DNA of 64,000 nucleotides. It comes from Flavobacterium kayseriense. GTDB taxonomy: Bacteria; Bacteroidota; Bacteroidia; Flavobacteriales; Flavobacteriaceae. The stretch's first letter is position 1; each line of letters starts with the position of its first letter. A program made the position numbers and the translations under genes. The stretch spans positions 667,695 to 731,694 of the forward strand of contig NZ_JACRUI010000001.1 in NCBI RefSeq assembly GCF_014305095.1, given 5' to 3'. The notes below the pieces were generated by a model. That model was not told the DNA's origin, ran no database searches, and saw nothing but the letters and a program-made list of their open reading frames with translations. Below are positions 25,690 through 47,141 of this stretch, in pieces.

Positions 25690-25862
25690 AAAATTTCAAG
25701 TAATAAAAATAGTGTTTTCAGAAACTCATTAGTTACAAATAAACGATTCTTTATTATTTTATCCAATACCCACTTTTAATGATTTTTTTGTCAGTGTCTG
25801 TTTCTAATTTGGCTTTAGTTTGAAGATTAACTTGATACAGCATTTCTCTGAACCGTTATCCC

Positions 25863-26004
25863 TAGCCCTGACTGCAATGGAATTCCTTATGCAAGAGGCC
25901 GCTGTTTTTTCTAGGTATACAAGAGCGACTGCAAGAAGCTCCTTGTATGCGGTAGAAAAGCAAGGACTATAAATAAGAATGTAAGGAAAGGCAGGATTAG
26001 CTCC
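25863..26004 (+). repeat. Structured intergenic repeat, copy 3 (Flavo-1-like)
   Basis: It is about 85-90 percent identical by eye to the copy at 28336 and shares the TAGCCCTGACTGCA opening and GCAGGATTAGCTCC ending. It stands in the 643-base gap between the HNH gene and the amidase, just at the edge of the accessory block. The rest of this gap has one terminator-like hairpin (26109) and no gene. Confidence 0.78.
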
Positions 26005-26108: not shown

Positions 26109-26140
26109 AAAGACCTTACATTGCTGTAAAGTCTTTTTAA
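26109..26140 (-). terminator. tRNA-type terminator, orphan copy
   Basis: On the minus strand the stem is AAAAAGACTTTACA with TGTAAGGTCTTTTT and loop GCAA; the one non-Watson-Crick pair is G-U on this strand only. The same sequence follows the tRNA-Asn 3' remnants at 28533 and 29073. Here it is preceded (minus sense) by TCGGTCACCCA, which looks like a degraded tRNA 3' end. Confidence 0.65.
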
Positions 26141-26332
26141 AATGGGTGACCGATAGCTATTGCGACTTTTTCGGTTGATTTATAATATGCTTATATCAAT
26201 GTCATATCAAGATGTTGCATTAGGTTTTTAACACCGATTTTGTCTTGTATTTACGTGCGCAAAACTAGCGTTGTAATCCACCTAAAAGTGATTTGATAGC
26301 CACTGTTATTTTTGATTTTTAATGGTTTAAAA

Positions 26333-27976: not shown

Positions 27977-28335
27977 TACAATTAATTTTTAGGTTTAAGT
28001 ATTGGCTTTTTTTGGTTAATTCTAGTTCGTTTTTACGTTATGCACTTAATTAAAGTGACTATCAACAAAAGGTCTCGGAAATTTATTCGAAATACAAGAG
28101 CATAAATTCTGCTACTTTGAACGGATTCAACTGTCCTTAGAAATAGCAAAACAGCAAGATTGTCGATTAGAACTCAAAGATAAACTTTTATTGTGCTTTT
28201 GGAGCATGATGACAGTAAAAGCAGGGTAGTATTTTGTATAAAAAAGTGAATCGTTTTTGTTCCTAATTACAAAGAGTGTTGTTAATTACAGAGCGTAAGT
28301 TTTTTTTTAAAATGCCCTTGTGGATACAGATTCCC

Positions 28336-28476
28336 TAGCCCTGACTGCAGTGGAATTCCTTATGTAATAGGCCGCTGTTTTTCGTGGTATACAAGAGCGA
28401 CTGCAAGAAGCTCCTTGTATGCCGTAGAAAAACCAGGGCTATAAATAAGAATGCAACGAAAGGCAGGATTAGCTCC
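28336..28476 (+). repeat. Structured intergenic repeat, copy 4 (Flavo-1-like)
   Basis: It has the same opening, ending and inner hairpin (GGTATACAAGAGC with GCTCCTTGTATGCC) as the copy at 25863. The 787-base gap from 27977 to 28763 holds this repeat, two terminators and two tRNA-Asn scars; 27977-28330 itself shows nothing recognisable. Confidence 0.78.
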
Positions 28477-28532: not shown

Positions 28533-28565
28533 AAAAAAGACCTTACATTGCTGTAAAGTCTTTTT
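28533..28565 (-). terminator. tRNA-type terminator next to tRNA-Asn scar 1
   Basis: It has the same stem and GCAA loop as the copies at 26109 and 29073, pairing fully only on the minus strand. It lies immediately downstream (minus sense) of the tRNA 3' remnant at 28571. Confidence 0.75.
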
Positions 28566-28570: not shown

Positions 28571-28610
28571 GCTTCCTCTCTTGTCCCGATAGCTATCGGG
28601 AGAACCAAGG
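28571..28610 (-). pseudogene. tRNA-Asn 3'-end remnant with palindrome in the T-loop (scar 1)
   Basis: The acceptor strand and both sides of the T-stem of tRNA-Asn are present, with one change in the acceptor strand. The T-loop is replaced by the perfect 18-base palindrome TCCCGATAGCTATCGGGA (28584-28601). Similarity to the tRNA stops after the T-stem. A tRNA-type terminator follows. Confidence 0.65.
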
Positions 28611-28662
28611 TTTAAAGTTTGCAGCATGATTAAAAAGCATGAAGATACCTGAAAATTAAGAA

Positions 28663-28696
28663 AAAAAAAAGCCCGACATTGCTGTCAGGCTTTTAA
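28663..28696 (-). terminator. tRNA-type terminator next to tRNA-Asn scar 2
   Basis: Minus-strand stem GCCTGACA with TGTCGGGC, loop GCAA, then ten T. It follows the second tRNA 3' remnant. Confidence 0.78.
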
Positions 28697-28699
28697 AAA

Positions 28700-28739
28700 G
28701 CTCCCTCTCTTGTCCCGATAGCTATCGGGAGAACCAAGG
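28700..28739 (-). pseudogene. tRNA-Asn 3'-end remnant with palindrome in the T-loop (scar 2)
   Basis: It matches the tRNA-Asn acceptor strand and T-stem exactly, again with TCCCGATAGCTATCGGGA (28713-28730) in place of the T-loop bases. It differs from scar 1 by one base in the acceptor part. Confidence 0.68.
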
Positions 28740-29111: not shown

Positions 29112-29158
29112 GCTCCCTCTCTTGGGCTCGAACCAAGGACCCTCTGATTAACAGTCAG
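29112..29158 (-). repeat. Left attachment site (47-bp copy of tRNA-Asn 3' part)
   Basis: These 47 bases are identical to 47067-47113. They cover the tRNA from the anticodon stem to the discriminator. The tRNA 5' half is missing here, so this is the displaced end left by integration of the 29.1-47.1 kb element. Confidence 0.92.
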
Positions 29159-29270
29159 TCTCATATTCGTTGCATTTCTTAGTTTTTATTAGCAAATAGT
29201 AGTAATACAGCCTATTGGATAGTTTAAGGTTTATCTTTTTGCATCACTTTTTTACACTTCTTACTATGAA

Positions 29271-29292
29271 TGTTTAACCTATGTTTGACCTG
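29271..29292 (+). repeat. Left pair of 11-bp direct repeats (candidate integrase arm sites)
   Basis: TGTTTAACCTA is followed directly by TGTTTGACCTG, 113 bases inside the left attachment site. The right end has TGTTTGACCTA plus TGTTTAACCTG at 46998-47019 in the same orientation, with similar flanks. The remaining bases between 29159 and 29335 show no gene. Confidence 0.65.
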
Positions 29293-29335
29293 AATAAAAT
29301 TTGAGCTGTATTGAATGTCTAATTTTGTTTGAATT

Positions 29336-29698
29336 TTAACCATTAAATATAACTTCAAAATTAATTTCAAGAATTGATCTATAGTCGTAGTAGAGAATAA
29401 GTGTTACTCCAATAAGTACTATTATAATAATTTTATGATAGATTTTTAAATTAGGTATAAATAGTGACATTATACCTAAGACAATTAATGCTGCACCTAA
29501 AATATAATACCATAGCATTAAAAATGCAAATATTAAATTTAATGCAAAATAAAGAATTGGCAGCCCAAAGCAAATAGACAAGCATACATAGATAACATTA
29601 ACAGGTTTAAGTTTTATTCTATCAGCGTATGCTGTTACTAAAAAGAAGACAAGTGTAGCAAAAGAAATTGAAGCCAAAATTAAATGTAGGTATTTCAT
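29336..29698 (-). CDS. Small membrane protein, unknown
   Basis: A 120-residue, very hydrophobic protein with four predicted transmembrane segments (about 3-22, 35-60, 64-85 and 92-106). There is no recognisable family motif. It is the leftmost gene of the integrated element, 122 bases downstream of the DUF805 gene on the same strand, and may be cotranscribed with it. Function unknown; it could be a cargo or an immunity-type membrane protein. Confidence 0.55.
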   Translation of the reverse strand: MKYLHLILASISFATLVFFLVTAYADRIKLKPVNVIYVCLSICFGLPILYFALNLIFAFLMLWYYILGAALIVLGIMSLFIPNLKIYHKIIIIVLIGVTLILYYDYRSILEINFEVIFNG

Positions 29699-29820
29699 CT
29701 GTCAGTTATTTTAAGTATTTCATAAGCTTAAACATGTAACTACAAAAAAGATCACTATTTACATCTTTGTAAATATACTCATAAGTTACTTTAGCTTTAA
29801 TCAAAGTTGCATTGTCTGGA

Positions 29821-30759
29821 TTATTTTTCTTCTGAATTCCCGTATTTGTTTTGAGATTTTGAACCAGGTATCAATGTGAGTAAAAGCATAGAAAAAGGAA
29901 CAGTCCACATAAAGATAATTATTATACCAGCCGCATAATCTATTGATATATAACCTTTTAAAATAAAGGCAAAAAGCAACAATTGTTTTGGAATAATAGG
30001 TAATAAACTAACCCAACCTGGTAGATTTAAATCGTGGAGTCTTTTAATTATTGGTTTTATTTCAAGTATCAACCAAAGAATATTTAGTAAGACTAGTAAT
30101 AATACTATCTCGTAATCATTATAATACTCAGCATCTGAAGTAATTGTTGTTTTAAATATACTATAGAAGAATAAGCTAAGTAATCCAATTTTTAGAAAAA
30201 AATCAGTTCTTCCAATTCTTCCGTCATAACTAAAAAGTCTTTTCACTAAGCTTTTTTTGACTTCGATTTTTTTTTGGGCTTCACATTTTTCAATCTCAAC
30301 CATGTTATTGTTATGGTCTATTAGATAAAAATTTTTGATGTATGTTTTAATTTTTTGAAGAATTGATAGAATGTTACTTTTATTACTATGATTTAAAGTG
30401 GGTTCTCCAATGTAATTTTTATTAATTTCTGCTGATTTTTTTTTTAAAATTGATGAATTGATGAATTGTTTAAATCTATCTATAAAAACCATTGGACTCC
30501 TTTTTATTTTATCATCTTTTGTAAATAAGAAACAATAGATTGCTATTCCTAATAATATTAGTAATGAAATTAATAAATATTTATACGACACATTGTATCC
30601 AAAAAAATCGATATGATAACGATGCAAGGGGGTAGAAATTTTTTCCCGATAATATTTTCCGTTTTTAAAAGGTTGTTTAATGGAGTAACCAATAATCATC
30701 CCAATACTACTTATTAAAATAAGAATTACAGAAATTTTTTTCTCTTCTAGGTTTTTCAT
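29821..30759 (-). CDS. DUF805 membrane protein with N-terminal extension
   Basis: A 312-residue inner-membrane protein. The C-terminal part (about 170-312) is a DUF805 domain: LFSYDGRIGRTDFF at its start, IKRLHDLNLPGW in the middle and LIPGSKSQNKYG at the end. Two more transmembrane helices lie in the N-terminal part (about 10-25 and 57-80), followed by a charged linker. DUF805 proteins have no established biochemical role. It is cargo of the integrated element. Confidence 0.82.
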   Translation of the reverse strand: MKNLEEKKISVILILISSIGMIIGYSIKQPFKNGKYYREKISTPLHRYHIDFFGYNVSYKYLLISLLILLGIAIYCFLFTKDDKIKRSPMVFIDRFKQFINSSILKKKSAEINKNYIGEPTLNHSNKSNILSILQKIKTYIKNFYLIDHNNNMVEIEKCEAQKKIEVKKSLVKRLFSYDGRIGRTDFFLKIGLLSLFFYSIFKTTITSDAEYYNDYEIVLLLVLLNILWLILEIKPIIKRLHDLNLPGWVSLLPIIPKQLLLFAFILKGYISIDYAAGIIIIFMWTVPFSMLLLTLIPGSKSQNKYGNSEEK

Positions 30760-30897
30760 TTACTTGTTTTATAATTAATATTTTTTGCTACTTTTCTTTA
30801 AAATTTTACGTTGGAAAAAATCTTTGACATCAATTTCTGCATTATTTCTTGTGACTAATAATTTGGCTATAAAAATAGAACCACTTTTTGTTTGTGA

Positions 30898-31512
30898 TCA
30901 ATTGCAATATTTTTTTATATAATCATATGAAAGTTTATTCCCTAATTCTCCTGCTTTACTAAAATCCAAACAAGCTGATTCTTTTTGCCCTAAACTAAAT
31001 TTCACCACTCCTCTGATTCCATAAGCGAAAGCATATTTAGGATTAATTTTAATTGCCATGTTCAAATCGGTTAATGCTCCCTGAAAATCATTTAATGCAA
31101 ATTTTGCAATTCCTTTTTGTGCATAAGATTCGAAATTGTTTTTATCTATTTCTATAGCTCTATTGTAATCGGAAATAGCTCCTCTGTAATCTTCACTTTT
31201 ATGCTTTTCTATTCCTCTAAATAAATAAGCATCAACATATTTAGGATCTAATTCAATAGCCTCGTTGAAATTAATCATTGTAAATACGTTAAATGCACCT
31301 GATTTTGGATCAGCACATAGCATTGCTTTATAGAAGTATGCTTTAGCATTTTTTGGGTCAATTTCAATTGCTTTGTCAAAATCTTTAAATGCTCCACGGT
31401 AATCTTTAAGTATTTTTTTTGAAGTTCCTTGACTAATATAATAATCACTTGATTGACTAAAAGAGTTATTTGTAAAGAGAATAAAAAGAATAAGTATTAT
31501 AAGGTTTTTCAT
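30898..31512 (-). CDS. Exported TPR-repeat protein
   Basis: A 204-residue protein with a signal peptide (cut near residue 19, NSFSQ) and about four to five classical tetratricopeptide repeats; three are very regular (YRGAFKDFDKAIEIDPKNA, YRGAISDYNRAIEIDKNNF and FQGALTDLNMAIKINPKYA). It ends with a Cys-containing Sel1-like helix (ESACLDFSKAGELG). It is probably a periplasmic binding scaffold. It is cargo on the element; its partner is unknown. The 374 bases upstream hold the operators described at 31816 and 31864, and otherwise nothing recognisable. Confidence 0.85.
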   Translation of the reverse strand: MKNLIILILFILFTNNSFSQSSDYYISQGTSKKILKDYRGAFKDFDKAIEIDPKNAKAYFYKAMLCADPKSGAFNVFTMINFNEAIELDPKYVDAYLFRGIEKHKSEDYRGAISDYNRAIEIDKNNFESYAQKGIAKFALNDFQGALTDLNMAIKINPKYAFAYGIRGVVKFSLGQKESACLDFSKAGELGNKLSYDYIKKYCN

Positions 31513-31815
31513 TTCATTTGTAATTTTTAGATTGTCAAAATATTTATCTGTATACCTCTTACCGAGTCTTCAGTTTGAGTTTTTTTAAAGCTTACAATAT
31601 CATCAGTTGTAATGGTTGTTTTTTCACATTTTATTGTTTTTTGGAATTTTGAACTCTAATAAGTTTCCATATTTAATAGTATTACTTTCTTGGTAAAGAG
31701 GAGGGCAGTGCTCAATAATAAACTTTTCATTTTATATAAGATTGATTTTTCAAAGTAATCTATTTTAGATATCATTCCCTTACGGTTTTCCTCATTCTGT
31801 TAAAATAACGGTTAG

Positions 31816-31831
31816 TTATCTTTTACGATAA
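31816..31831 (+). promoter_or_regulatory. Operator half-site 1 (TTATCTTTTACGATAA)
   Basis: A 16-base element 55 bases before the XRE gene. It is the exact reverse complement of the element at 31864-31879, giving a divergent pair 48 bases apart. It is the likely binding site of the XRE protein. Confidence 0.65.
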
Positions 31832-31863
31832 CCACTATATCCAAATATAGAACAAATTTTGAC

Positions 31864-31879
31864 TTATCGTAAAAGATAA
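31864..31879 (-). promoter_or_regulatory. Operator half-site 2 (reverse complement of site 1)
   Basis: On the + strand it reads TTATCGTAAAAGATAA, 7 bases before the XRE start codon. A bound repressor here would block the gene's own expression. Confidence 0.65.
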
Positions 31880-31886
31880 TTAAAAT

Positions 31887-32099
31887 TTGGAAGAGTCACT
31901 ACAGATAAAGGTTGGTAAGCGTATTCAGGAAATTAGAGTTGAGAAAAATATATCTCAACAAGATTTGGCTGCTAGGTGCAACTTTGAAAAAAGTAACATG
32001 TCTAGGCTAGAAGCAGGTAGAGCAAATGCTACGCTATCTACATTGGATGTAGTAGCTAAAGCTTTAAATGTAAATATTACTGAGTTTTTTAAATTCTAA
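31887..32099 (+). CDS. XRE-family transcriptional regulator
   Basis: A 70-residue single-domain Cro/CI-type helix-turn-helix protein. The HTH is seen as ISQQDLAARCNFEKSNMSRLEAGRAN (about 22-47), followed by TLDVVAKALNVNITEFF. The frame opens at a TTG just after a stop codon, so the start is TTG or internal. Paired 16-base inverted operators lie directly upstream, which suggests autoregulation. It is the only + strand gene in the left half of the element apart from the R-M set, and may control it or the lysogeny-like state of the element. Confidence 0.88.
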   Translation: MEESLQIKVGKRIQEIRVEKNISQQDLAARCNFEKSNMSRLEAGRANATLSTLDVVAKALNVNITEFFKF

Positions 32100-32611
32100 T
32101 TTTCATCATCTTGACCCACAAATTCTAGTTCTTTATCAAGAAGATATAACATTAATAGAGCCTTATCATTTATCACTTTTATATTAATCAAATAGTCTAT
32201 GAGTCTATAAACGTATAGATCCTTGATTATTACTCGAGCAACAATAGCTGTAGGTTTTTCAAATTTTTCGCAGTTGTAATCTAAGTTTTCACAAAAATCT
32301 AAATTTCTAAAACAGGTACATTTAGATAATCCACAAGTAACCTTATCAGGAAAGAGTAAAGCCAAATTAAACTTTTTGCTTACTAAATCATTTTGCTTTA
32401 GGGAATTCCAATCCCATTAGTCTCTATATTTTTCTAATAGAGGATAACTCCATTTGATTTTTGAATTGTATGAAAGGATGTTAAAATCTAGTTTGTCATT
32501 GTAGAATTCAATATCATCATCTGTAAATGGATAGAGTTCTGCAATACTATCTTTTAAGAATTGCATTCTTACTTCTCTTGGGAAATTTAAATAATTTTTG
32601 AACTTATCCAT
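32096..32611 (-). pseudogene. Unknown protein gene split by one in-frame TAA
   Basis: Two open stretches lie in the same minus-strand frame: 64 codons from the ATG at 32611 to a TAA at 32417-32419, then 106 more codons from 32416 to the stop at 32096. Across the stop the text reads PLLEKYRD-stop-WDWNSLKQND. As far as I know, PLLEKYxDxWDW runs on without a break in related proteins of unknown function, so the TAA looks like a nonsense change of a Lys codon. The C-terminal part is Cys-rich (CGLSKCTCF, CENLDYNC), perhaps metal binding. Alternatively a TTG at 32365 starts a separate small gene. Confidence 0.6.
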
Positions 32612-32733
32612 TATAAAAAAAATAGGGCTGTATTGAGTAGCAAATTAATGAATACGCTATTAATAGTAATCTGTAAGAAAGAAAATAATTGAAATTTAGT
32701 TACTGCAAGGTATATCTTTATTAGTTTACACTT

Positions 32734-33192
32734 TCATGTTAACATTCCTTCACTTGAGAAGCTATAAAAAACATTCTTTGTAATTATTAAGTGGTCTATT
32801 AAAGTAATGTCAAGTAAGTCTGAACATTTTTTAATTTTCTTTGTTAATCTAATATCAGCATCACTTGGTTTTGTGTTCCCAGATGGATGATTATGTGAAA
32901 TGATGATACCACAAGCATTGCATTTCAATGCTACTGCAAACAGTAATCTTACATCTACTACAGTTCCAGTTATTCCGCCCTTAGATAGAGAGTAAATACC
33001 TAAAGCCTCATTACTTCTATTTAGTAAAATTACTTTAAACTCTTCCTGAAGTTCTAGTGTACCTAAATCCCAAGACTTTAATAAGAACTCGTATGCAGTT
33101 TGTACAGAGTTCATTTTCTCTTTTTGAATATTTTGTGTAGAGTAGTAAACCTGTATCTCTGCTAATTCATTTGTGGAGTTAGTTGTTTTCAT
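32734..33192 (-). CDS. RadC-like JAB/MPN domain protein
   Basis: A 152-residue RadC-type protein with the JAMM metal motif SHNHPSGNTKPSDAD at about residues 98-112 and the upstream NRSNEALGIYSLSKGG strand. It lacks the N-terminal helix-hairpin-helix domain of chromosomal RadC, which is normal for the short forms carried on Bacteroidota plasmids, phages and integrative elements. The precise role of these proteins is unsettled; a link to DNA processing of the element is likely. Confidence 0.92.
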   Translation of the reverse strand: MKTTNSTNELAEIQVYYSTQNIQKEKMNSVQTAYEFLLKSWDLGTLELQEEFKVILLNRSNEALGIYSLSKGGITGTVVDVRLLFAVALKCNACGIIISHNHPSGNTKPSDADIRLTKKIKKCSDLLDITLIDHLIITKNVFYSFSSEGMLT

Positions 33193-33290
33193 AATTTAGA
33201 AGTATTTAGGTAATTGGGAAATAGTTGAAATACCCTCTATACATTTTAACCATTTAGGTTTATTCGGATAGAGGATATTTTTAAATAAAA

Positions 33291-33695
33291 TTAATGTTGC
33301 AATTGACCATTACTTGAAAATGAATTCTCACTAGGAGTTTTGCTCATAAATTCATCAACAGTAGTTTTGCTTTTCTGTGCTTTTGGAGTAGTGGCTTTTT
33401 CTTCTTCCACATATTCAAATCTATGGGTTAAGGTGATTACCTCTCCAGTATCTTTGATGGTGTAATCATAAGCCTCACATTCCACTTTCTCTACCTTTCC
33501 AGGTAGTTCAGTTCCAATTAATGCTTGACAAGTCAATTCATCAAATGTGGTAGAGATGGAAGCTTTTCTAGCTGTAATATAAAATTTGCTTGTTTCTTTG
33601 GATTTCACCATTTCAATTCCACCTTGAAGTTCGAGTACAAAGAATTCTTTGCCGTCCTCTGTTTCTCTTTTTTTGTAATTAATAATTCTTACCAT
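33291..33695 (-). CDS. Conserved-type element protein, unknown
   Basis: A 134-residue protein. The first 95 residues are beta-rich (FFVLELQGGIEMV, SKFYITARKASIS, KVEKVECEAYDY) and the last 40 are a polar, probably disordered tail with many Ser, Thr and Lys. A single-strand-DNA-binding (OB-fold) type role would fit the strand pattern and acidic tail, but I see no diagnostic motif. It lies 98 bases upstream of the RadC-like gene on the same strand, and divergent from the R-M operon. Confidence 0.55.
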   Translation of the reverse strand: MVRIINYKKRETEDGKEFFVLELQGGIEMVKSKETSKFYITARKASISTTFDELTCQALIGTELPGKVEKVECEAYDYTIKDTGEVITLTHRFEYVEEEKATTPKAQKSKTTVDEFMSKTPSENSFSSNGQLQH

Positions 33696-33955
33696 GTTCT
33701 TGATTTTTTTGAGTTAAACTTTTTAGCATTCAAAAACATAAACCTGTAGCTTCAAATACAGCTATCAACTTGTATCTATATCTACGGGAATAATTTTTTG
33801 GTATGCTAGTGATAGGTGGGGGTCTTGAGTTTAGGTTTTGTTACGGGGGGAGTGTTGTCAAGGTAGTTTATTCTCTTAAAAATTTGAGCCAAAAAAATAT
33901 CCAAAAAAAAATTATGTAAAAAGTATTACATTTATGCTTTTAAATTTTAAAACGT

Positions 33956-35527
33956 ATGCCAACACTTAATTGGATAGGAAAAGACAAAGTAATAAACCAT
34001 CACCAGGATGTTCCTTATAGAGTACTAGAAAAACAATACACTTATAGTAATGGATCTGAAACTAATGACACCATTAGTGAGAATAAAATAATTCATGGAG
34101 ATAATCTTGAAGCATTAAAAAGTTTATTACCTGAATATGAAGGGAAAATAAAGTGTATTTATATTGACCCTCCCTACAATACAGGTAATGAAGGGTGGGT
34201 GTATAATGATAATGTAAGTGACCCTAAACTTAAAAAATGGTTAGGTCAAGTTGTAGGTAAAGAGAGCGAAGATTTATCAAGACATGATAAATGGTTGTGC
34301 ATGATGTACCCTAGATTGAAACTATTACATAAGTTATTAGCAGAAGATGGTGTAATCTTTATTTCTTTAGATGACAATGAGTTCGCTAATTTGAAATTAA
34401 TTTGTGATGAAATTTTCGGCACTAATAATTTCTTGAATGATGTTATTTGGCAACATAGCATACAGCCTAAAGGATATCTAGGAAAATTTTCAATTCATCA
34501 TAACCATACATTGGTATATTCAAAATACTCAAGTTACATTCTTGGAAATCTGGATAGAACTGATGAACACAATAAAGCTTATTCTAATCCTGATAATGAT
34601 GTTAAGGGGATGTGGAGGACGGGTGATGTTAGAAATGCATTATACAGGCCTAATTTAATTTATGATATTCAAACCCCTTCAGGTAAAATAATTAAACCAC
34701 CAAAGAATGGCTGGAGATGGAGCAAACAAACTTTACATGAAAAAATTGAAACAAAAGAGATATTTTTCAACAAAGGAGAAACTAACATTATAAGAAAAAT
34801 ATACTTGAAAAATCTTGAAGGAAGAGCTCCTGAAACAATTTGGTTTGGTCAAGATGTTGGCACTACTAGGGATGCAAATAAAACATTAAAAGATATATTT
34901 CAAAATGAGGAAATTCCATTTGATACACCAAAACCAGTTAATTTAATTAATAGAATTTTAGAAATATCAACAGACAAGAACTCAATAATACTTGATTCCT
35001 TTGCTGGTTCAGGCACAACAGCTCATGCAGTTTTAAACCTAAATAAACAAGATGGTGGCAATAGAAAATTCATTTTGATAGAAATGGAAGACTATGCTAA
35101 TACTATTACAGCTGAAAGAGTAAAAAGAGTTATAAAAGGATATGGCACAGATGCTAAACCAATTGAAGGAACAAATGGGGATTTTAGTTATTATGATCTA
35201 GGTGAGCCTATTTTTCTAGAAAATGATTTGCTAAATGAAGCTATTGGTATAGAGAGAATTAATGAGTATGTATGGTTTTCTGAAACTAAGTCTAAATACA
35301 GCAAGCAAACAGAAAAGCATTTACTTGGAGTAAAAGAGCAAACAGCTTATTATTTTTATTATAATGCCACAAATATGACCACTCTAGATGAAAGCTTTTT
35401 AAGAAAGCTTAAAACTAAGGCAGAACAGTATATAATTTATGCAGATAATTGCTTGCTAGATGAAAAGCTAATGAGTAAATACCACATCATTTTCAAGAAA
35501 ATCCCAAGAGACATTACTAGATTTTAG
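33956..35527 (+). CDS. Type III restriction-modification methyltransferase (Mod)
   Basis: A 523-residue beta-class DNA methyltransferase that protects host DNA and supplies sequence recognition to the type III complex. Motif IV DPPY stands at about residues 71-74, within YIDPPYNTGNEGWVY, and motif I FAGSGTT at about 348-354; this order is that of the N6-adenine beta class. The recognition domain lies between them. It is the first gene of a tight + strand operon with rhuM (9-base gap) and res (1-base gap). The recognition sequence cannot be read from the protein. I saw no long simple repeat that would make it phase variable. Confidence 0.93.
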   Translation: MPTLNWIGKDKVINHHQDVPYRVLEKQYTYSNGSETNDTISENKIIHGDNLEALKSLLPEYEGKIKCIYIDPPYNTGNEGWVYNDNVSDPKLKKWLGQVVGKESEDLSRHDKWLCMMYPRLKLLHKLLAEDGVIFISLDDNEFANLKLICDEIFGTNNFLNDVIWQHSIQPKGYLGKFSIHHNHTLVYSKYSSYILGNLDRTDEHNKAYSNPDNDVKGMWRTGDVRNALYRPNLIYDIQTPSGKIIKPPKNGWRWSKQTLHEKIETKEIFFNKGETNIIRKIYLKNLEGRAPETIWFGQDVGTTRDANKTLKDIFQNEEIPFDTPKPVNLINRILEISTDKNSIILDSFAGSGTTAHAVLNLNKQDGGNRKFILIEMEDYANTITAERVKRVIKGYGTDAKPIEGTNGDFSYYDLGEPIFLENDLLNEAIGIERINEYVWFSETKSKYSKQTEKHLLGVKEQTAYYFYYNATNMTTLDESFLRKLKTKAEQYIIYADNCLLDEKLMSKYHIIFKKIPRDITRF

Positions 35528-35536
35528 ACAAAAATT

Positions 35537-36532
35537 ATGGAAGAAGATTTAAAAAAATTCATTTTATATACTGCTCCAAGTGGAGAAGTAAGGGTAGACG
35601 TTTTGCTACAAAATGAATCTGTATGGCTTACACAAAAAGCTATTGCAGAGTTATTTGGAGTACAAGTTCCTGCCATAAGTAAACATTTAAAAAACATTTT
35701 TGAAGAGGAAGAATTAATTGAGTCTTCAGTTCTTTCCATTTTGGAAACAACTGCCAAGGATAATAAAAATTACAATACAAATTATTACAACCTTGATGCT
35801 ATAATTTCTGTTGGCTATAGAGTTAATTCTACCAAAGCTACACAATTTAGAATATGGGCTACTAAAACTCTGAAAGAATATATTATTAAAGGTTTTGTAT
35901 TAGATGATGATAGGCTAAAACAAGGTCAAACCCTTTTTGGAAAAGATTACTTTAAGGAGTTATTACAAAGAGTACGTTCCATACGTGCAAGTGAAAGAAG
36001 AATTTACCAACAAGTAACTGATATATTTGCTGAATGTTGCATAGATTATGACAGAAATGCTGACATAACCAAGAATTTTTATGCTATGATACAGAATAAG
36101 TTTCACTTTGCTATTACTGGAAAAACAGCAGCAGAGATTATACATAGCATTGCTAACAAGCAAAAGGAAAATATGGGATTAACCAACTGGAAGAATAGCC
36201 CAGAGGGAAGAATTTTAAAACAAGATGTAATTGTTGCTAAGAACTATTTAGAAGAAAAAGAAATCAGACAACTGGAAAGAACTGTAACCTCCTATTTTGA
36301 TTATATTGAAGGATTAATAGAAAGAGAAAACACTTTCACTATGGCAAAATTAGCAGCAAGTGTCAATAAGTTTTTGAATTTTAATGATTACAAAATTTTA
36401 GAGGGAAAAGGTAAAATCTCAAAAATACAAGCTGATAAAAAAGCTTTGAAAGAGTACGAGGTTTTTAATAAGACACAAAAAATAATTTCTGATTTTGATA
36501 AAGAAATTAAGAAATTAAACAAGAAAAAGTAA
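35537..36532 (+). CDS. RhuM-family protein
   Basis: A 331-residue cytoplasmic protein of the RhuM/virulence-protein family. Visible are the N-terminal VWLTQKAIAELFGVQVPAIS segment (an HTH-like DNA-binding part), IISVGYRVNSTKATQFRIWA and the C-terminal helical region. RhuM genes are often found within or beside R-M operons and in genomic islands; their biochemical function is not established. Here it lies between mod and res with gaps of 9 and 1 bases, so it must be coexpressed. It may modulate or toxin-guard the R-M system; that is inference. Confidence 0.9.
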   Translation: MEEDLKKFILYTAPSGEVRVDVLLQNESVWLTQKAIAELFGVQVPAISKHLKNIFEEEELIESSVLSILETTAKDNKNYNTNYYNLDAIISVGYRVNSTKATQFRIWATKTLKEYIIKGFVLDDDRLKQGQTLFGKDYFKELLQRVRSIRASERRIYQQVTDIFAECCIDYDRNADITKNFYAMIQNKFHFAITGKTAAEIIHSIANKQKENMGLTNWKNSPEGRILKQDVIVAKNYLEEKEIRQLERTVTSYFDYIEGLIERENTFTMAKLAASVNKFLNFNDYKILEGKGKISKIQADKKALKEYEVFNKTQKIISDFDKEIKKLNKKK

Positions 36533-36533
36533 A

Positions 36534-39206
36534 ATGGAATTAAAACCATACCAACAAGATGTAATTAAGGATTTAGAAAATTACCTTTCCTATCTTCAAA
36601 AATATAAAACCCCAAACAAAGCTTTTAATGAACTTTGGACTGAAAGAGTTGGTGCATACAATCCACTTACTCAAACAGGAATGCGAGGATACAAAGACAA
36701 CATTCCTAATGCTGTTCATATTGCTATAAAAGTTCCTACTGCTGGTGGTAAAACATTTATAGCCTGCAATGCATTGCATACTATAAACAAACATTTTAGT
36801 CAAGGTAATGCCAAAGCTGTAATATGGTTGGTGCCTTGGAGTAACCTGCTGCAGCAAACATACAACAACCTTAATAACCCAAACCATCCTTATAGAGAAA
36901 AGCTAAATAGCTTATTTGGTCATAAGGTTGAAGTGTATCAAAAGGACCAATTACTGCAGGGGGCTAATTTTAATCCAACCTCAGTAACAGAACAGCTTAA
37001 TATTTTTGTGTTGAATTTTAGTAGTTTACGTATTGATAAAGCTAAAAAAGAAGATAGAAAAATATTTCAAGAAAATGGTGCATTAGAATCCTTTAGAGAT
37101 ATAATTATTAATAAGGATTTAGTACTTGAGGGTACAGATGAGACAGCTTTAATTAATATAATAAGGAGCTTAAATCCTATTGTAATAGTTGATGAAAGTC
37201 ATAATGCTGAGAGTGACTTAAGTGTTGAGATGCTACAAAATCTTAACCCTTCACTTGTATTAGATTTAACTGCTACACCAAAGGAAAATAGTAACATCAT
37301 AAGTTTTGTAAGTGCTTTAAAACTAAAGCAGGAAAGCATGGTTAAACTACCTGTAGTAGTATATAATCACCACAAAAAAGAGGAAGTTGTTAATAGTGCG
37401 CTACACTTGCAGAGACAGTTAGAATTAATAGCTAAAGAGGAAGAAAAAGAAAGTGGGAAGTATATTAGACCTATAATTTTGTTTCAAGCTCAATCTAATA
37501 TCAAGGGTAAAAACAACACTACCTTTCAAAAAATAAAGGAACAGTTAGTTAAGCTAAAAATACCCGAAGAACAGATCAAGATAAAAGTTAGTGGTGTTGA
37601 TGAACTTAAAGGTGTTAACTTAATGGATAGAAATTGTCCCGTTAGATACATCATAACTGTAAATGCTCTTAAAGAGGGATGGGATTGTCCTAATGCTTAT
37701 ATTTTAGCTTCATTAGCTGACAAATCCTCTGCTGTAGAAGTTGAGCAAATCCTTGGTAGAGTGCTTAGACAGCCTTATGTTAGCAGACACAAGAATGCAT
37801 TATTGAACATGTCATTTGTATTAACTGCCTCTGATAAATTTAAAGACACCTTAGATAATATTGTAAAGGGGTTACAAGATGCAGGATTTTCTAAAGATGA
37901 TTATTTTGCTGCGGAATTACCTGAACCACAATTGACAAATGAGGAAATTTTACAAAAAGACTTATTTGAAAACCCTGCAAATGCAGAAGATACAGAAGTT
38001 AAATCAGATGAAGAGTTTGATACTGAGTCAATAGATTTTAATCCTGAGGATGAAGTAACCATAGAAACTTATACGGATACTTCTACTGTAGTTGGTACAA
38101 TAACAAAACAAGCTATTATTGATAGTAAGATATTTGATGAGAAAGTTAGCAATTTAGATATTGATGACAATACTACATTCTTTACAGAAGTTATGAAGCA
38201 AACACCAAAGAAATATTTAATAGATACACAATTCCAAGCACTAGCTACAACTATAGAATTGCCTCAGTTTTTCCTAAAGACAGAGGAAGATGAGCTAACT
38301 GATGGGATATTGTTTGAGGAATTAACCAGCTATGATTCTTTATTAAATAAGAATAGCTTATTGAAAGGATTTAATTTACTGGAGTGTGATACAAAAATAA
38401 ACTTTGATGAAATTTCAGCTGACATATATGCAGTAGATTTTGATGGTAGTAAAGGTACCGCTACAGCTAATAAAGTTACTCAAAGAGCCAAAAGCATATT
38501 AGTAGATACCATTTTATCTAAGCCAAAAGAAAACCAAGTAAAAGATGTAAGTAGGTTTATTGTAGGTAAGTTAGGAGATATGACCCCTATAAGAGAGCAA
38601 GATTTAACACGATATGTAAGTAGGGTTTTTGAAAGTTTATCTAATGACCAAATTAGAGATATAATTAATAACGAATTCATATACATTCAAAAAATTAAGA
38701 ATAAAATTAATGATTTAGGTGCTGCTTATTCTAAAGCAAGATTTAAGATGTTACTAGATGCAAATGAGGTTTTTGTAAAAGAAAATTTCTCATTTACTGA
38801 GAGTATAAACCCCTTAAGTCCTAGTACGCCAATTGGTAAGTCATTATATGAATTAGAAGACTCCATGAATATCTTTGAACAAGATATGATCATGAGTATA
38901 GCTACACTTGACAACGTTGTTTTTTGGCATAGGAATCTTTCTCGTGGAAAGGGCTTTTTTATTAATGGGTATTACCGTGATCATTATCCTGACTTTATTA
39001 TTTCTACTAAAAAAGGAAACATTATTCTAATAGAAACTAAAGGAGATCATTTAGATAATGATGACAGCAAGGACAAAAATAAGTTAGGTAAAATATGGGC
39101 TGAAAAATCAGGAGACAAATACAAGTATTTCATGGTTTTTCAAACTAAGAATGTAGAGAATTGCTACACGGCAAACACGATAATTGAAGTTTTAAAGAGG
39201 TTGTAA
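36534..39206 (+). CDS. Type III restriction endonuclease subunit (Res)
   Basis: An 890-residue SF2 translocase-nuclease that cuts unmodified foreign DNA with Mod. The helicase motifs are intact: Walker A PTAGGKT (about 69-75), VDESHNAE (Walker B, about 217-224), TATPKE, and motif VI with EQILGRVLRQP. Near the C-terminus a PD-(D/E)xK nuclease motif is visible as YPDFI and then ILIETKGD (about 820-838). All key residues are there, so the enzyme is probably active. It is the third gene of the mod-rhuM-res operon. Confidence 0.93.
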   Translation: MELKPYQQDVIKDLENYLSYLQKYKTPNKAFNELWTERVGAYNPLTQTGMRGYKDNIPNAVHIAIKVPTAGGKTFIACNALHTINKHFSQGNAKAVIWLVPWSNLLQQTYNNLNNPNHPYREKLNSLFGHKVEVYQKDQLLQGANFNPTSVTEQLNIFVLNFSSLRIDKAKKEDRKIFQENGALESFRDIIINKDLVLEGTDETALINIIRSLNPIVIVDESHNAESDLSVEMLQNLNPSLVLDLTATPKENSNIISFVSALKLKQESMVKLPVVVYNHHKKEEVVNSALHLQRQLELIAKEEEKESGKYIRPIILFQAQSNIKGKNNTTFQKIKEQLVKLKIPEEQIKIKVSGVDELKGVNLMDRNCPVRYIITVNALKEGWDCPNAYILASLADKSSAVEVEQILGRVLRQPYVSRHKNALLNMSFVLTASDKFKDTLDNIVKGLQDAGFSKDDYFAAELPEPQLTNEEILQKDLFENPANAEDTEVKSDEEFDTESIDFNPEDEVTIETYTDTSTVVGTITKQAIIDSKIFDEKVSNLDIDDNTTFFTEVMKQTPKKYLIDTQFQALATTIELPQFFLKTEEDELTDGILFEELTSYDSLLNKNSLLKGFNLLECDTKINFDEISADIYAVDFDGSKGTATANKVTQRAKSILVDTILSKPKENQVKDVSRFIVGKLGDMTPIREQDLTRYVSRVFESLSNDQIRDIINNEFIYIQKIKNKINDLGAAYSKARFKMLLDANEVFVKENFSFTESINPLSPSTPIGKSLYELEDSMNIFEQDMIMSIATLDNVVFWHRNLSRGKGFFINGYYRDHYPDFIISTKKGNIILIETKGDHLDNDDSKDKNKLGKIWAEKSGDKYKYFMVFQTKNVENCYTANTIIEVLKRL

Positions 39207-39337
39207 GTTTGTTTTTTTTATAATTTTTAGAATCCTATCCAGATTTTAATTGTTAAAAAAGTCAAAGAATTGTGAATAAGTTTGGCTTTCATAATGTCAA
39301 TTAAAAACTAAACTTTGTAATGTAACAAATTGATTAA

Positions 39338-40216
39338 ATGGGAAGTTTAGCAACCACAGTGGAAGAGCAAATAGAAAAGCTTTCGGAGAGAGGAATGGGT
39401 TTTGACGATAATGACCAAAAGGAAAAAGCAAAAGAAATTTTACTTGATATTGGTTATTATAGATTAGGGTTTTATTGGAATCCATTTGAGAGCGGAAATA
39501 GGCATAATTTTGTTGAGGGCACCAAATTTTCTGATGTTGTATGTTTATACTATATGGATGTTGATTTAAAAAACATTTTAAATAAAGCTTTAAATAGAAT
39601 AGAGATTAACTTACGGACACAAATTATTTACTATGTTTCAAATGCTAATGCCGATAACCCAACGTGGTTTGCTAGTAAACGTGTTATGCAATCCAAATTT
39701 GTAGATGAATTTCCAAATTACTATAATGATAAATTTAAAAGGAATAATAAACCCATTAAAAAGCATCATATAAATTATCCAAATGATATATATGCTCCTG
39801 CATGGAAAACACTAGAATTCTTAACATTTGGAACCATATTTACAATTTACTTCTCTTTAAAAGATGAAGAGTTGAAAAAAAGGATTGCAAATGTATATGG
39901 GATTAGGAGAGTTAGAGTGTTTGAGAATTTTTTAAAAACAGTTATATTTATAAGGAATTTATGTGCTCATAGTGGAATATTATTTGATTCAAATACACCA
40001 AAAGAGATAAATACAACACCCCTAATTACATTTAACAACAATAATAGACATTCATTGGATTCTTCAATCAAGGTTATTTTATATTTTCTAGAAAAGATTT
40101 CTACTAGCAGAAAAAAAATTATCGAAGATGAAATAATTGCTCTTTTTGACAATCATTTTGATAATCCAATATTAAGAAAAATTATAGATGACAAGATCGG
40201 GTATATTAAAAATTAA
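39338..40216 (+). CDS. Abi_2 (AbiD/AbiF-like) abortive infection protein
   Basis: A 292-residue protein of the Abi_2 family, related to lactococcal AbiD and AbiF. Seen are the N-terminal TVEEQIEKLSERGM segment, IGYYRLGFYWNPF, the helix LKNILNKALNRIEINLRTQI, and the conserved RNLCAHSGILFD near residue 205, resembling the RxxxxH motif of HEPN ribonucleases. Such proteins stop phage growth by killing or arresting the infected cell. It follows res by 131 bases on the same strand, so R-M and Abi make a two-layer defence cargo. A terminator follows. Confidence 0.88.
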   Translation: MGSLATTVEEQIEKLSERGMGFDDNDQKEKAKEILLDIGYYRLGFYWNPFESGNRHNFVEGTKFSDVVCLYYMDVDLKNILNKALNRIEINLRTQIIYYVSNANADNPTWFASKRVMQSKFVDEFPNYYNDKFKRNNKPIKKHHINYPNDIYAPAWKTLEFLTFGTIFTIYFSLKDEELKKRIANVYGIRRVRVFENFLKTVIFIRNLCAHSGILFDSNTPKEINTTPLITFNNNNRHSLDSSIKVILYFLEKISTSRKKIIEDEIIALFDNHFDNPILRKIIDDKIGYIKN

Positions 40217-40316
40217 CTCAAAAAATTTTTTTATATAATATAAATGATATAATTTTGTTGTCCCAAGTGCCCAACTTTTCATTTGCATTAGTGCTGCACT
40301 ATAAAATAGTAAACAT

Positions 40317-40341
40317 AACCCAGCCTTGCGCTGGGTTTTTT
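40317..40341 (+). terminator. Terminator after the Abi_2 gene
   Basis: An 8-bp stem (AACCCAGC / GCTGGGTT) with loop CTTGC is followed by T residues. Confidence 0.82.
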
Positions 40342-40345
40342 ATTA

Positions 40346-40374
40346 CCCAACCCCCAAATAAAGAGGTTGGGGGG
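40346..40374 (-). terminator. Probable terminator of the minus-strand DUF3871 operon
   Basis: On the minus strand CCCAACC and GGTTGGG pair around an A/T-rich loop within a C- and G-rich stretch just beyond the DUF3871 stop codon. The U-tract is imperfect. Confidence 0.5.
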
Positions 40375-40376
40375 AA

Positions 40377-41540: not shown

Positions 41541-42369
41541 TTGATGAGATATTAGAAGTTAGTTGTTGTATGAGATTTTTCTTTGCTACAAAGTCCTGTT
41601 CTATGCTTTTAGCACTCTCTAGGTTATTGTTGTAAAGGTTTGTAAGCTCTGACAAGTTATTACATTCACTTACCTTAACCTTTAGCTCTTCCTTAGTCAT
41701 GGTACTGTTGCACCAGTCTAAAATTTTTTTACCTGTGTTAGAATTAATAACAAACTGTGGTTTCCCCTCAAACAAATTAGTTCTGTCTTTTGATGCAGTA
41801 GCAAAGTGTTTATAATCAATGTCAAAGACTATTGTAAACTCATAGCTAATCTCATCTCTCTGAATTGCTTTTAATCCTACTTTTTCAGGGACCATCTTGC
41901 CATTTCTCTCACTCAAGACGTAATCTTGTTTTACCCTCATAGTGCAAATGATGTGAACATCACTTTGAAGTATCTTTTCTACAAATGCTTTTTGTCTCGG
42001 AGTTATCTTATTCCAATTTGTGAATGAGTTTCCAGTAAGCGAAGCATGGTAATCCAGTAGAAAATCCCAACAATGTGAGATACTATCTAAAATTATTACT
42101 TCCATCCCTGACTTTATGCATAATTCTATTGCCTCTATGTATCTCTCAGGGGAATGAGGAGACTTTAGGTTCAAGACATTGTAACTACCTAGATGGGCAT
42201 AAAGATTACTAGAACCTGCTTCTGTATCAATGACTGCTACTTTTGAAAGGTTTCCATTGGTTAATCCTTTTGCTAATAAAAGTGCACTGTAGCTCTTTCC
42301 AGCTCCTGATGGAGCTTGCAAAGCCATTTTAATTTTGGCTTTGCTTCTTTCTGATTTTTTTAATTCCAT
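41521..42369 (-). CDS. AAA ATPase (RecA-like, phage nucleotide-binding type)
   Basis: A 282-residue P-loop ATPase. Walker A is APSGAGKSYSA (about 18-28), Walker B EVIILDSISH (about 89-98), and there is a sensor-like IICTMRVKQDY. This is the AAA_24 / Sak4-like single-strand annealing or RecA-like group often found in phages and mobile elements, where it helps recombination or replication. It overlaps DUF3871 by 20 bases; the two are a conserved-looking pair in the element's core. Confidence 0.88.
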   Translation of the reverse strand: MELKKSERSKAKIKMALQAPSGAGKSYSALLLAKGLTNGNLSKVAVIDTEAGSSNLYAHLGSYNVLNLKSPHSPERYIEAIELCIKSGMEVIILDSISHCWDFLLDYHASLTGNSFTNWNKITPRQKAFVEKILQSDVHIICTMRVKQDYVLSERNGKMVPEKVGLKAIQRDEISYEFTIVFDIDYKHFATASKDRTNLFEGKPQFVINSNTGKKILDWCNSTMTKEELKVKVSECNNLSELTNLYNNNLESAKSIEQDFVAKKNLIQQLTSNISSNGNGTH

Positions 42370-42574
42370 GATTTATAATTTAGAGATTTATGTTGTTTTT
42401 TGTAGGTTTTAATTTTCCATCAATGGAAATCCTCCAATAAAAGAGAAAGCTATAATTATATATAACTTTACTCCCTATGTATATAATCTTACTTTATATT
42501 GTAATTTATTAAAGGAAATCCTGTGGTGGGGTATTTAAGCAAAAAGGGAAAGCTATTAGCCCTCCCTTTTTTAA

Positions 42575-43396: not shown

Positions 43397-43479
43397 GATT
43401 TTATTTTTTTAAATTAATTTATTAATGATATTTAAGTTTAATCTTAAATTTTTTTAAGATTAATATGTAATAACTACGG

Positions 43480-44736
43480 TTAAGCTGAAAACCTAACTTC
43501 ATTTTCTACATTGTAATTTGGTAAGGGTTCTTGCAATAGCTTTTCATTTGCATCATCAATAGTATTATTATCAAAATCTTTTAGATAAGCAGTTGTTATT
43601 CCAACATTTTGATGCCCCATAGATTGACTTATCATATCTATTGAAACTCCTGATTCCTTCAGGTTAGTGGCGTAACTATGTCTTGCAACATAGCTCGTAA
43701 CAGTACTTTCTATTTCCTGTATTTCAGCAATTTTTTTTAAGTCACTATTAAATTTCTTTAATGTCTTCGCTTTTCTATTCTCAATTTGAATAGGAGTCAA
43801 CCCTTCTTTTAAAAGGATAGGAAATACATAATCGGTTATGGTGTTTACATGCTTGTATTCTTCAAGAATGATTCTGACAGGTTCCAGGATTTTTACACTG
43901 AAATTACCTTTTGTTTTGGAGCGTGTATAAACAATTCTTCCATTTTGTACATTACTCCATCTTAATTTCATAATGTCAAAGAAGTTTATTCCAGAGGTGT
44001 AATAAGAAAACAAGAACAGTTTTTTTGACTCTGCTAAATGTGGGTATTTCAACTCGTCTAAATCTTCAATTTTGCGAATTTCAGCTCTTGTTAGGGCTTT
44101 CTTTATTCCAGAACCTTTTAATTTTGAAACTTTATAAGCTTTAAATGGATAGTGCTTTTCATCAACTACTCCCTTTTTTATAGCATCATTATACAATGCT
44201 CTTAATTCTCTCATTCTAACTCCAATCCCACCATCTTTGCTTCCTGTAGCTCTTAAATGTGTTTCATATTTGTCTAGCATCTCAACAGAAATGTCTCTAA
44301 ATTTCAATTGATTGTTTTTGGCAAACTTGTAAAAGGAATTCATAGTGTCTAAGTAAGCTCTTGCATTTCCAGTTCTTCCAGCTTTGTTTAAATCAGCAAT
44401 CTTATCTTCCCAAAATGTCTTTACAGATGTATTACTGTCCTTTTTGCCCCTAAATTTGGCTTCAAATTGAGTAAGAGTAAAGTCAATTTCTTCAATATTG
44501 AATTCATCAATTACTTTAAAAGCTTTTTCTTTTAGTTTTAGGAGTACTCTGTTTCTTTGAACATGGTTTGGATGACTTTTTTTAAATTGCGCATTAGCTT
44601 CATCCCAATCTTTCTTTGTACAATCCATACCTAAAGAAATCATTTTAGGTTTTCTGTCTTTAATGATTTTGAGAACTAGTGGAAACAATCCCTCTTTTGA
44701 TGCTTTGTCTCTTAATAATATTTTTATACTTGCCAT
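43480..44736 (-). CDS. Tyrosine recombinase (integrase)
   Basis: A 418-residue site-specific recombinase that catalyses integration into and excision from tRNA-Asn. It has an N-terminal arm-binding domain (about 1-90), a SAM-like core-binding domain (about 95-190) and a catalytic domain (about 210-400). Catalytic residues can be placed: first Arg in FFDIMKLRWSNV (about 257), Lys in the TRSKTKGN turn, YVARHSYAT with the second Arg (about 352), GHQNVGIT, and the nucleophile Tyr in TAYLKDF (about 385). The usual HxxR His is Tyr here, as is common in the Bacteroidota group. It is about 2.3 kb from the right attachment site. Confidence 0.95.
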   Translation of the reverse strand: MASIKILLRDKASKEGLFPLVLKIIKDRKPKMISLGMDCTKKDWDEANAQFKKSHPNHVQRNRVLLKLKEKAFKVIDEFNIEEIDFTLTQFEAKFRGKKDSNTSVKTFWEDKIADLNKAGRTGNARAYLDTMNSFYKFAKNNQLKFRDISVEMLDKYETHLRATGSKDGGIGVRMRELRALYNDAIKKGVVDEKHYPFKAYKVSKLKGSGIKKALTRAEIRKIEDLDELKYPHLAESKKLFLFSYYTSGINFFDIMKLRWSNVQNGRIVYTRSKTKGNFSVKILEPVRIILEEYKHVNTITDYVFPILLKEGLTPIQIENRKAKTLKKFNSDLKKIAEIQEIESTVTSYVARHSYATNLKESGVSIDMISQSMGHQNVGITTAYLKDFDNNTIDDANEKLLQEPLPNYNVENEVRFSA

Positions 44737-44787
44737 ATTTTTATGATTTACATTTTATACACTTTATAATACCAGAATTTGTAAACA

Positions 44788-47064: not shown

Positions 47065-47141
47065 TGGCTCCCTCTCTTGGGCTCGAACCAAGGACCCTCT
47101 GATTAACAGTCAGATGCTCTAACCAACTGAGCTAAGAAGGA
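47065..47141 (-). tRNA. tRNA-Asn (GTT)
   Basis: A complete cloverleaf on the minus strand. The acceptor stem TCCTTCT pairs with AGAGGGA (one G-U), the D stem is GCTC/GAGC, the anticodon arm has the loop CTGTTAA with anticodon GTT, and the T-arm is CTTGG / TTCGAGC / CCAAG. The discriminator is G and CCA is encoded (47065-47067). The 3' part from the anticodon stem onward is duplicated at 29112-29158, so the gene is the target of the integrated element and was restored by it. Confidence 0.97.
47067..47113 (-). repeat. Right attachment site (47-bp tRNA-Asn repeat)
   Basis: It is identical to 29112-29158 over 47 bases; identity breaks at both outer edges. It is part of the intact tRNA gene. Confidence 0.92.

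What the first reader, a model, noticed from the sequence alone, without database searches (positions are those of the whole stretch)
28571..28739. tRNA-Asn 3' remnants whose T-loop is replaced by an 18-base palindrome
Two scars keep the acceptor strand and T-stem of tRNA-Asn, but the T-loop is exchanged for TCCCGATAGCTATCGGGA. Each is followed by a tRNA-type terminator. A third place (26140-26165) shows a similar pattern: a terminator, a tRNA-like 3' end and CGATAGCTAT. It looks as if one palindrome enters the same spot in tRNA 3' ends. A RAYT/REP-like process or repair of an attacked tRNA copy could do this.
Basis: seen in the sequence. Interest (0 to 1): 0.6.

Follow-up and report, generated by a model that had tools for sequence, protein, structure and literature searches.

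The report
A palindrome that replaces tRNA loops
An 18-letter DNA palindrome has repeatedly replaced a few letters in the loops of many different tRNA genes and fragments, and in other non-coding spots, in bacteria of the Bacteroidota; it looks like one of the smallest mobile DNA repeats, moved by a process that is not identified here.

Summary
Two tRNA-Asn 3' remnants (28571-28610, 28700-28739) carry TCCCGATAGCTATCGGGA where the T loop should read GGCTC. The third place (26148-26165) is at best a decayed palindrome without a tRNA end.

The palindrome is a dispersed repeat: 2037 exact copies in 170 of 398 genus genomes, reversed control 0. Of 145 unselected sites, 35 had an empty relative; in 31 of these, 3-5 bases are replaced without duplication. 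Only 7 of those 145 lie in tRNA (5 by BLAST, 2 by eye), so it is not tRNA-specific.

Within tRNA it is near-precise. With 0-6 bases allowed after GGTTC, 22 of 36 places put the palindrome directly against it; all 19 read were tRNA-like, against 0 of 11 read at other spacings. At least 13 isotypes are hit, across Bacteroidota.

The REP/RAYT idea is not supported: 0 of 30 Y1_Tnp loci carry the palindrome. A genome-level association with Y1_Tnp remains (stratified odds ratio 3.4). The two window scars probably share one ancestor.

Best reading: a very small mobile palindrome, agent unknown.

The parts
28584..28601 (+). 18-bp palindrome TCCCGATAGCTATCGGGA in scar 1 (self-complementary)
28713..28730 (+). 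18-bp palindrome TCCCGATAGCTATCGGGA in scar 2 (self-complementary)
28571..28610 (-). scar 1: truncated tRNA-Asn 3' part (CCTTGGTTC-palindrome-CAAGAGAGGAAGC), 5 T-arm bases replaced
28700..28739 (-). scar 2: truncated tRNA-Asn 3' part (CCTTGGTTC-palindrome-CAAGAGAGGGAGC), 5 T-arm bases replaced
28533..28565 (-). terminator-like hairpin of scar 1 (GACCTTACATTGCTGTAAAGTC core)
   Evidence: read; also in direct-repeat family D1
28660..28694 (-). terminator-like hairpin of scar 2, different stem (GCCCGACATTGCTGTCAGGC core)
   Evidence: read
29112..29158 (-). unmodified tRNA-Asn 3' remnant, 47 bases identical to the gene, T loop intact; likely att repeat of the neighbouring island
47065..47141 (-). 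intact tRNA-Asn (GTT), the reference for the replaced bases
43480..44736 (-). tyrosine integrase (Phage_integrase, Arm-DNA-bind_5) of the island between the two tRNA-Asn repeats
26148..26165 (+). possible decayed palindrome (4 of 18 positions differ) beside a similar terminator; no tRNA end

Best explanation
The palindrome is a very small dispersed mobile repeat of Bacteroidota. Shown: one fixed 18-bp word recurs in up to 68 copies per genome and, where an empty relative could be found, stands in place of 3-6 bases with clean junctions and no target duplication. It occupies the T loops, and less often other loops or arms, of tRNA genes and fragments of many isotypes. Inferred: an unidentified enzyme acting in trans pastes the hairpin (as DNA, or through RNA) into a short gap or staggered break, losing the few bases between the cuts. 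tRNA T loops are a recurrent target, possibly because tyrosine integrases cut there or because the GGTTC sequence is favoured. In this window the insertion hit an old tRNA-Asn att remnant, and the palindrome-bearing unit was then duplicated in an att array.
For: 2037 copies in 170 of 398 genomes, reversed control 0. Replacement of 3-5 bases in 31 of 35 unselected sites with an empty relative, 35 being all of 145 sites for which one was found; in phage-collection contigs 8 of 36 sites had one, replacing 3, 5 or 6 bases. In GGTTC-selected loci, 46 of 53 replaced 3-6 bases, and 6 more showed another palindrome at the same spot. Adjacent-GGTTC places: 22 of 36; 19 of 19 read tRNA-like, 0 of 11 read at other spacings. 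T arms of 13 isotypes at BLAST E <= 0.001. A non-random edge: T at -1 is 6% against 33% background, C at -3 is 46% against 17% (144 sites). Near copies with 1-2 changes exist (G006: 77 places against 40 exact), as expected of decaying insertions.
Against: No mobilising gene was found, and no insertion was caught happening or compared between strains of one species. Empty sites are mostly related sequences elsewhere, not orthologous loci, and 110 of 145 unselected sites had none. Short-homology conversion between repeats could spread some copies. The window's two scars are probably one event plus duplication. Within T loops the junction varies: tRNA-Leu in L044 and L149 has it one base later, L088 before C56, L310 with a variant.
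Confidence: 0.7

Rival explanations
1. It is a REP element mobilised by a RAYT (TnpA-REP, Y1_Tnp) of the same genomes.
For: Small palindrome, many copies. Across 398 genomes the palindrome goes with Y1_Tnp: 155 of 170 palindrome genomes have it against 143 of 228 others; after six genome-size strata the odds ratio is 3.4, z 3.7.
Against: In 10 genomes with 16-68 copies, 30 of 41 Y1_Tnp matches were fetched with about 1.5 kb on each side: 0 of 30 carry the exact 18-mer, 1 carries a variant, 25 have other palindromes within 350 nt (no random control was run for that 25). Six RAYT loci with 2 kb flanks, five of them among the same 30 genes, show none either. 15 of 170 palindrome genomes have no Y1_Tnp match, including G068 (37 copies) and G274 (18). 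No GTAG or CGTC tag at the ends.
Confidence: 0.12
2. The palindrome is a repair patch: tyrosine integrases or nucleases make staggered breaks in tRNA loops and elsewhere, the overhang is lost, and an abundant small hairpin DNA is joined in.
For: The replaced length (3-6 bases) looks like a stagger. In tRNA the sites are mostly T, anticodon and variable regions. The window scars lie next to an integrase-bearing island with a tRNA-Asn att repeat. That a phage integrase uses a T-loop attB was seen in a search listing (PMC1762012, abstract start only).
Against: Most unselected copies are outside tRNA, where no integrase site is known, and no source of a free 18-bp hairpin is known.
Confidence: 0.12
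3. The pattern is spread by short-homology gene conversion or by local duplication, not by insertion.
For: Many non-tRNA copies lie in common intergenic word repeats (GCCAC 20, CGCAA 20 of 288 flanks). The window scars share a truncation edge with an array in G237.
Against: T loops of 13 isotypes share little beyond GGTTC on the left and nothing constant on the right, and the replaced bases differ between tRNAs.
Confidence: 0.15
4. Hairpin-tip targeting: the palindrome inserts only where single-stranded DNA or RNA folds into a loop.
For: tRNA loops are hit, and some copies sit inside larger hairpins (own C6 copy in L003; L010, L042).
Against: 143 genus sites: flank pairing is no better than with permuted flanks (z -1.4, -1.5, -0.4 for 8, 12, 20 nt); 33 viral sites reach z -2.6 at 20 nt only (several displaced-control values there were invalid). 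Replaced bases are not more unpaired than neighbours in 28 non-tRNA sites (mean rank 0.52 and 0.42).
Confidence: 0.08

Closest known systems
Small dispersed repeats (SDR) of Nostoc and relatives (Elhai et al. 2008)
   Same: Very small, hairpin-forming in some families, mobile without an assigned enzyme, one family (SDR5) inserted at a precise position of a short word (HIP1), as cited in a passage of PMC4390886.
   Different: SDRs are 21-27 nt and cyanobacterial (recalled; the paper is not held). This is an 18-bp perfect palindrome in Bacteroidota, replaces 3-6 bases and recurs in tRNA T loops.
REP elements with RAYT (TnpA-REP)
   Same: Small palindrome, high copy, intergenic.
   Different: No resident Y1_Tnp gene examined is flanked by it, no GTAG or CGTC tag, and it is shorter than the 20-40 bp given in the abstract of PMC3733652 (listing).
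Yeast mitochondrial GC clusters (GC42) and hairpin elements of organelle genomes
   Same: Short palindromic repeats mobile by an unknown route, with turnover between relatives (passages of PMC4478555).
   Different: GC42 is flanked by short direct repeats like target duplications; here bases are lost and no duplication is seen.
Rickettsia palindromic elements (RPE)
   Same: Palindromic repeats that enter genes; RPE-1 in a gene is mentioned in a passage of PMC3733652.
   Different: RPEs are about 100-150 bp and sit in proteins (recalled).
HIP1 (highly iterated palindrome) of cyanobacteria
   Same: Abundant fixed palindrome in one phylum (PMC4390886, abstract start and passages).
   Different: HIP1 is 8 bp (GCGATCGC) and is linked to methyltransferases; this one behaves as an inserted block with recoverable empty sites.

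Membership tests
REP/RAYT | high-copy small palindrome dispersed between genes | tested here: met
   up to 68 exact copies per genome, 170 of 398 genomes
REP/RAYT | conserved GTAG or CGTC tag at one end | tested here: not met
   flank tally of 144 sites: strongest 4-letter neighbours are GCAA, CCAC, TTTA, TTAG; neither tag is among the 18 most common
REP/RAYT | RAYT gene flanked by copies of the same palindrome | tested here: not met
   0 of 30 Y1_Tnp loci in ten palindrome-rich genomes; 30 of 41 matches were fetched
REP/RAYT | presence tracks Y1_Tnp | tested here: inconclusive
   stratified odds ratio 3.4, z 3.7, but 15 of 170 palindrome genomes have no match, one with 37 copies
very small mobile repeat (SDR-like) | constant block with recoverable empty sites | tested here: met
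   35 of 145 unselected sites have an empty relative, 31 of them lacking 18 and holding 3-5 bases
very small mobile repeat (SDR-like) | recent mobility between strains of a species | not tested
   one genome per species was available in the collections used
transposon or MITE with target duplication | direct repeat of the target at both ends | tested here: not met
   filled and empty junctions show loss of 3-6 bases and no repeat
hairpin-tip insertion | site lies in an unpaired or loop position | tested here: not met
   28 non-tRNA sites, mean rank 0.52 (30-nt flanks) and 0.42 (50-nt flanks); in tRNA, loops are hit

The most novel reading that the evidence does not exclude
Bacteroidota carry a dedicated, undescribed activity that pastes one fixed 18-bp palindrome into short staggered breaks, discarding the 3-6 bases between the cuts. 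tRNA T loops, just beside C56, are its preferred structured target, so that tRNA genes and att remnants throughout the phylum are silenced or locked by the same hairpin. It would be among the smallest mobile DNA elements known.
Probability: 0.3. Interest if true: 0.85.

Novelty: new variant of a known kind. Interest (0 to 1): 0.6.

Why it matters
Mobile DNA of this size has no known mechanism. Here the target (a tRNA T loop) has a known ancestral sequence in every genome, so gains, losses and junctions can be read exactly and a machine can be sought by comparing strains. It also bears on how tRNA att sites and phage-like tRNA arrays decay, and it warns tRNA annotators that palindrome-bearing tRNAs in Bacteroidota are probably broken copies (inference).

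Tried and rejected
Hairpin nesting as a general rule: rejected for the genus and not supported by folding of empty sites. RAYT as the agent: disfavoured, although the association speaks for it. A larger element with the two half-palindromes as its ends: the half TCCCGATAG outside the palindrome occurs 8 times in the unselected loci against a mean of 1.2 (largest 5) for 60 shuffled words; this is a mild excess that decayed copies could explain, and no such element was seen. A gene regularly enclosed by palindromes: three loci with clustered copies were checked for ORFs and gave unrelated genes; three further clusters (L298-L300) lie in repetitive intergenic words or beside each other without a common gene seen in the flanks printed. 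Sequencing artefact: not plausible for copies present in many assemblies, including complete chromosomes among the titles. Literature: the 16-mer occurs in 0 papers of the library; palindromic + tRNA + T-loop + Bacteroidetes + insertion gives 0 papers; two wider searches gave 25 papers each, seen as listings only (20 and 15 shown), with none recognised as describing this repeat. RepRanger (PMC12306157) lists Flavobacterium species with many REPs, but the passages seen give no sequence of this kind. The first look at nested pairing treated all tRNA as one class; the unselected and GGTTC-selected sets were kept apart afterwards because the GGTTC pattern itself selects T loops.

Full report
WHAT IS THERE. 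The window lies at C1:667695-731694 of a 3.58-Mb genome whose genus relatives, by the titles of matching public records, include many Flavobacterium (the genome itself is unnamed). At 28571-28610 and 28700-28739 two tRNA-Asn 3' parts read, in sense, CCTTGGTTC-TCCCGATAGCTATCGGGA-CAAGAG(A)GG(A/G)AGC, where the intact gene at 47065-47141 reads CCTTGGTTC-GAGCC-CAAGAGAGGGAGC. So 5 bases of the T arm are replaced by an 18-bp perfect palindrome. A longer remnant at 29112-29158 shares 47 bases with the gene and has a normal T loop. The terminators of the two scars differ.

LOCAL CONTEXT. Between the remnant at 29.1 kb and the gene at 47.1 kb lies an island with a tyrosine integrase (43480-44736), an Abi_2 protein and a ResIII-type restriction protein. 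The 47-base repeat is therefore most likely the att duplication of an integrated element (inference). In another species (G237, locus L034) two tandem units have the same truncation edge CCTTGGTTC, a palindrome (one decayed) at the same place and the same type of terminator. The two window scars are thus probably copies of one palindrome-bearing att unit, not two independent insertions.

HOW COMMON. CCCGATAGCTATCGGG occurs in 12 of 40 relatives. TCCCGATAGCTATCGGGA occurs in 170 of 398 genus genomes, 2037 copies in all, at most 68 in one genome, with 0 for the reversed pattern. Copy number rises with genome size (Spearman 0.57). With up to two mismatches there are 77 places in G006 (40 exact), 40 in G009 (26), 35 in G015 (22), 97 in G124 (66), 89 in G217 (68) and 8 in the own genome (3), reversed control 0. 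It is also in 37 stretches of the viral collection.

IT REPLACES BASES. For each palindrome in the loci held I looked for a relative in which the same flanks are contiguous or separated by at most 25 bases, dropping hits whose spacer held the palindrome or a 10-base half of it. Of 145 unselected sites 35 had one; the spacer is 3 (6 sites), 4 (13), 5 (12), 8, 13, 14 and 20 bases. Of 36 viral-collection sites 8 had one: 3 (1), 5 (1), 6 (6). Of 104 sites in GGTTC-selected loci 53 had one: 3 (4), 4 (7), 5 (26), 6 (9), 8 (1), and six with 17 or 18 bases, most of them another palindrome at the same spot. No target duplication is seen. No random-position control was run; under even spacing over 0-25, three lengths would hold about 4 of 35 (arithmetic). 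The flanks are not random: T is 6% at the base next to the palindrome (33% background), C is 46% three bases out (17%), and only 14 of 144 sites extend the palindrome by a complementary pair, against about 39 expected from base composition (the 39 is my arithmetic).

tRNA. In the unselected set 5 of 145 sites match a tRNA by BLAST, and two more do by eye (the first window scar and L110), so about 5%. Their places are the T arm (3), the variable region (3) and, by eye, the anticodon region (1). For a test of position I searched 398 genomes with GGTTC followed by 0-6 free bases and the core: 36 places, 22 with the 18-mer directly after GGTTC. Of those 22, 19 were fetched and all look like tRNA T arms by eye; of the 14 at other spacings 11 were fetched and none does. 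A second sample of 345 phylum genomes with 0-30 free bases gave 14 places in 10 genomes, 6 of them directly adjacent; two of these are the window's and three are near-identical neighbours in one genome. A scan of 84,980 species for the adjacent form found 62 stretches, all but one titled as Bacteroidota (the exception is a Limnohabitans bin). That scan fixed the spacing and so cannot test it. T arms of Asn, Tyr, Pro, His, Leu, Cys, Ala, Met, Thr, Phe, Glu, Asp and Arg tRNAs match at E <= 0.001 on at least one side. L184 has three consecutive array tRNAs with a palindrome in the T loop, one of them a variant, near intact neighbours. The position is not absolute: tRNA-Leu copies in L044 and L149 carry it one base later, L088 has GTT replaced on the other side of C56, and L310 holds a variant one base on. 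Other insertions fall in the variable region (GGTCC replaced; L036, L148, L123, L128), the D region (L153, L198) and the anticodon arm (L178, L183, L147); L303 may be one near the acceptor end. Related palindromes (TCCCGATAATTATCGGGA, CCCCGAAAGCTTTCGGGG and others) occupy the same places.

NOT HAIRPIN TIPS IN GENERAL. Pairing of the flanks outside the palindrome does not exceed permuted flanks in 143 genus sites (z -1.4, -1.5, -0.4), though 33 viral sites reach z -2.6 at 20 nt; flanks at displaced points pair less than real ones at 8 and 12 nt, which fits GC-richer flanks, and some displaced values were invalid. The replaced bases of 28 non-tRNA sites are not unusually unpaired.

NOT THE RESIDENT RAYTs. 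Y1_Tnp occurs in 298 of 398 genomes. In ten palindrome-rich genomes there are 41 matches, some weak; 30 were fetched, none has the exact 18-mer within about 1.5 kb, one has a variant, and 25 have other palindromes within 350 nt, which look like their own REPs. On the other side, palindrome presence and Y1_Tnp presence are associated (155 of 170 against 143 of 228; odds ratio 3.4 and z 3.7 after size strata). I read this as shared richness in mobile DNA; it could also mean an ancestral or sporadic role.

READING. The simplest account is a very small mobile palindrome, pasted in place of a few bases by an unknown agent, with tRNA T loops as a recurrent target. The closest described things are the SDRs of cyanobacteria (recalled, and cited in PMC4390886) and the GC clusters of yeast mitochondria (passages of PMC4478555), which differ in host, length and target duplication. 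No paper with this sequence was found in the library searched. The mechanism steps are inference throughout; the replacement pattern and the tRNA targets are shown.

Noticed in passing
window 28333-28474 and 25860-26002 (+), 4722-4802 and 54515-54603 (-): Four Flavo-1 RNAs (RF01705) above the gathering score; two stand just upstream of the scar terminators, and the two share a 91-94% direct repeat. In G009 several palindromes sit inside sequences that look like Flavo-1.
   Followed up: partly
window 29112-47141: Likely integrated island at tRNA-Asn with tyrosine integrase, Abi_2, ResIII and DUF3871 proteins, bounded by a 47-base tRNA-Asn repeat.
   Followed up: partly
L148 4684-5431, L151, L034 (G237): Tandem series of tRNA-Asn genes or 3' remnants with palindromes in variable and T regions; L034 lies upstream of an ORF that looks like a cytosine-5 DNA methyltransferase by eye.
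   Followed up: partly
L317, L324, L333 and other Y1_Tnp loci: Flavobacterium-group Y1_Tnp genes have different palindrome families beside them (for example CTGGACTTCAGTCCAG, ATGTTCCTAGCGGAACAT, CCCACGGTTTCAACCGTGGG), apparently a set of RAYT/REP pairs.
   Followed up: no
L200 about 5863; L150 4006 and 4378: tRNA-Met copies carry palindromes of another family (CCGCC..GGCGG) in the D or variable region together with the 18-mer in the T loop.
   Followed up: no
L210, L223, L225, L235 (viral collection): The palindrome replaces 6 bases inside CCCTCT..AGAGGG-type hairpin repeats that are themselves common in these contigs.
   Followed up: no
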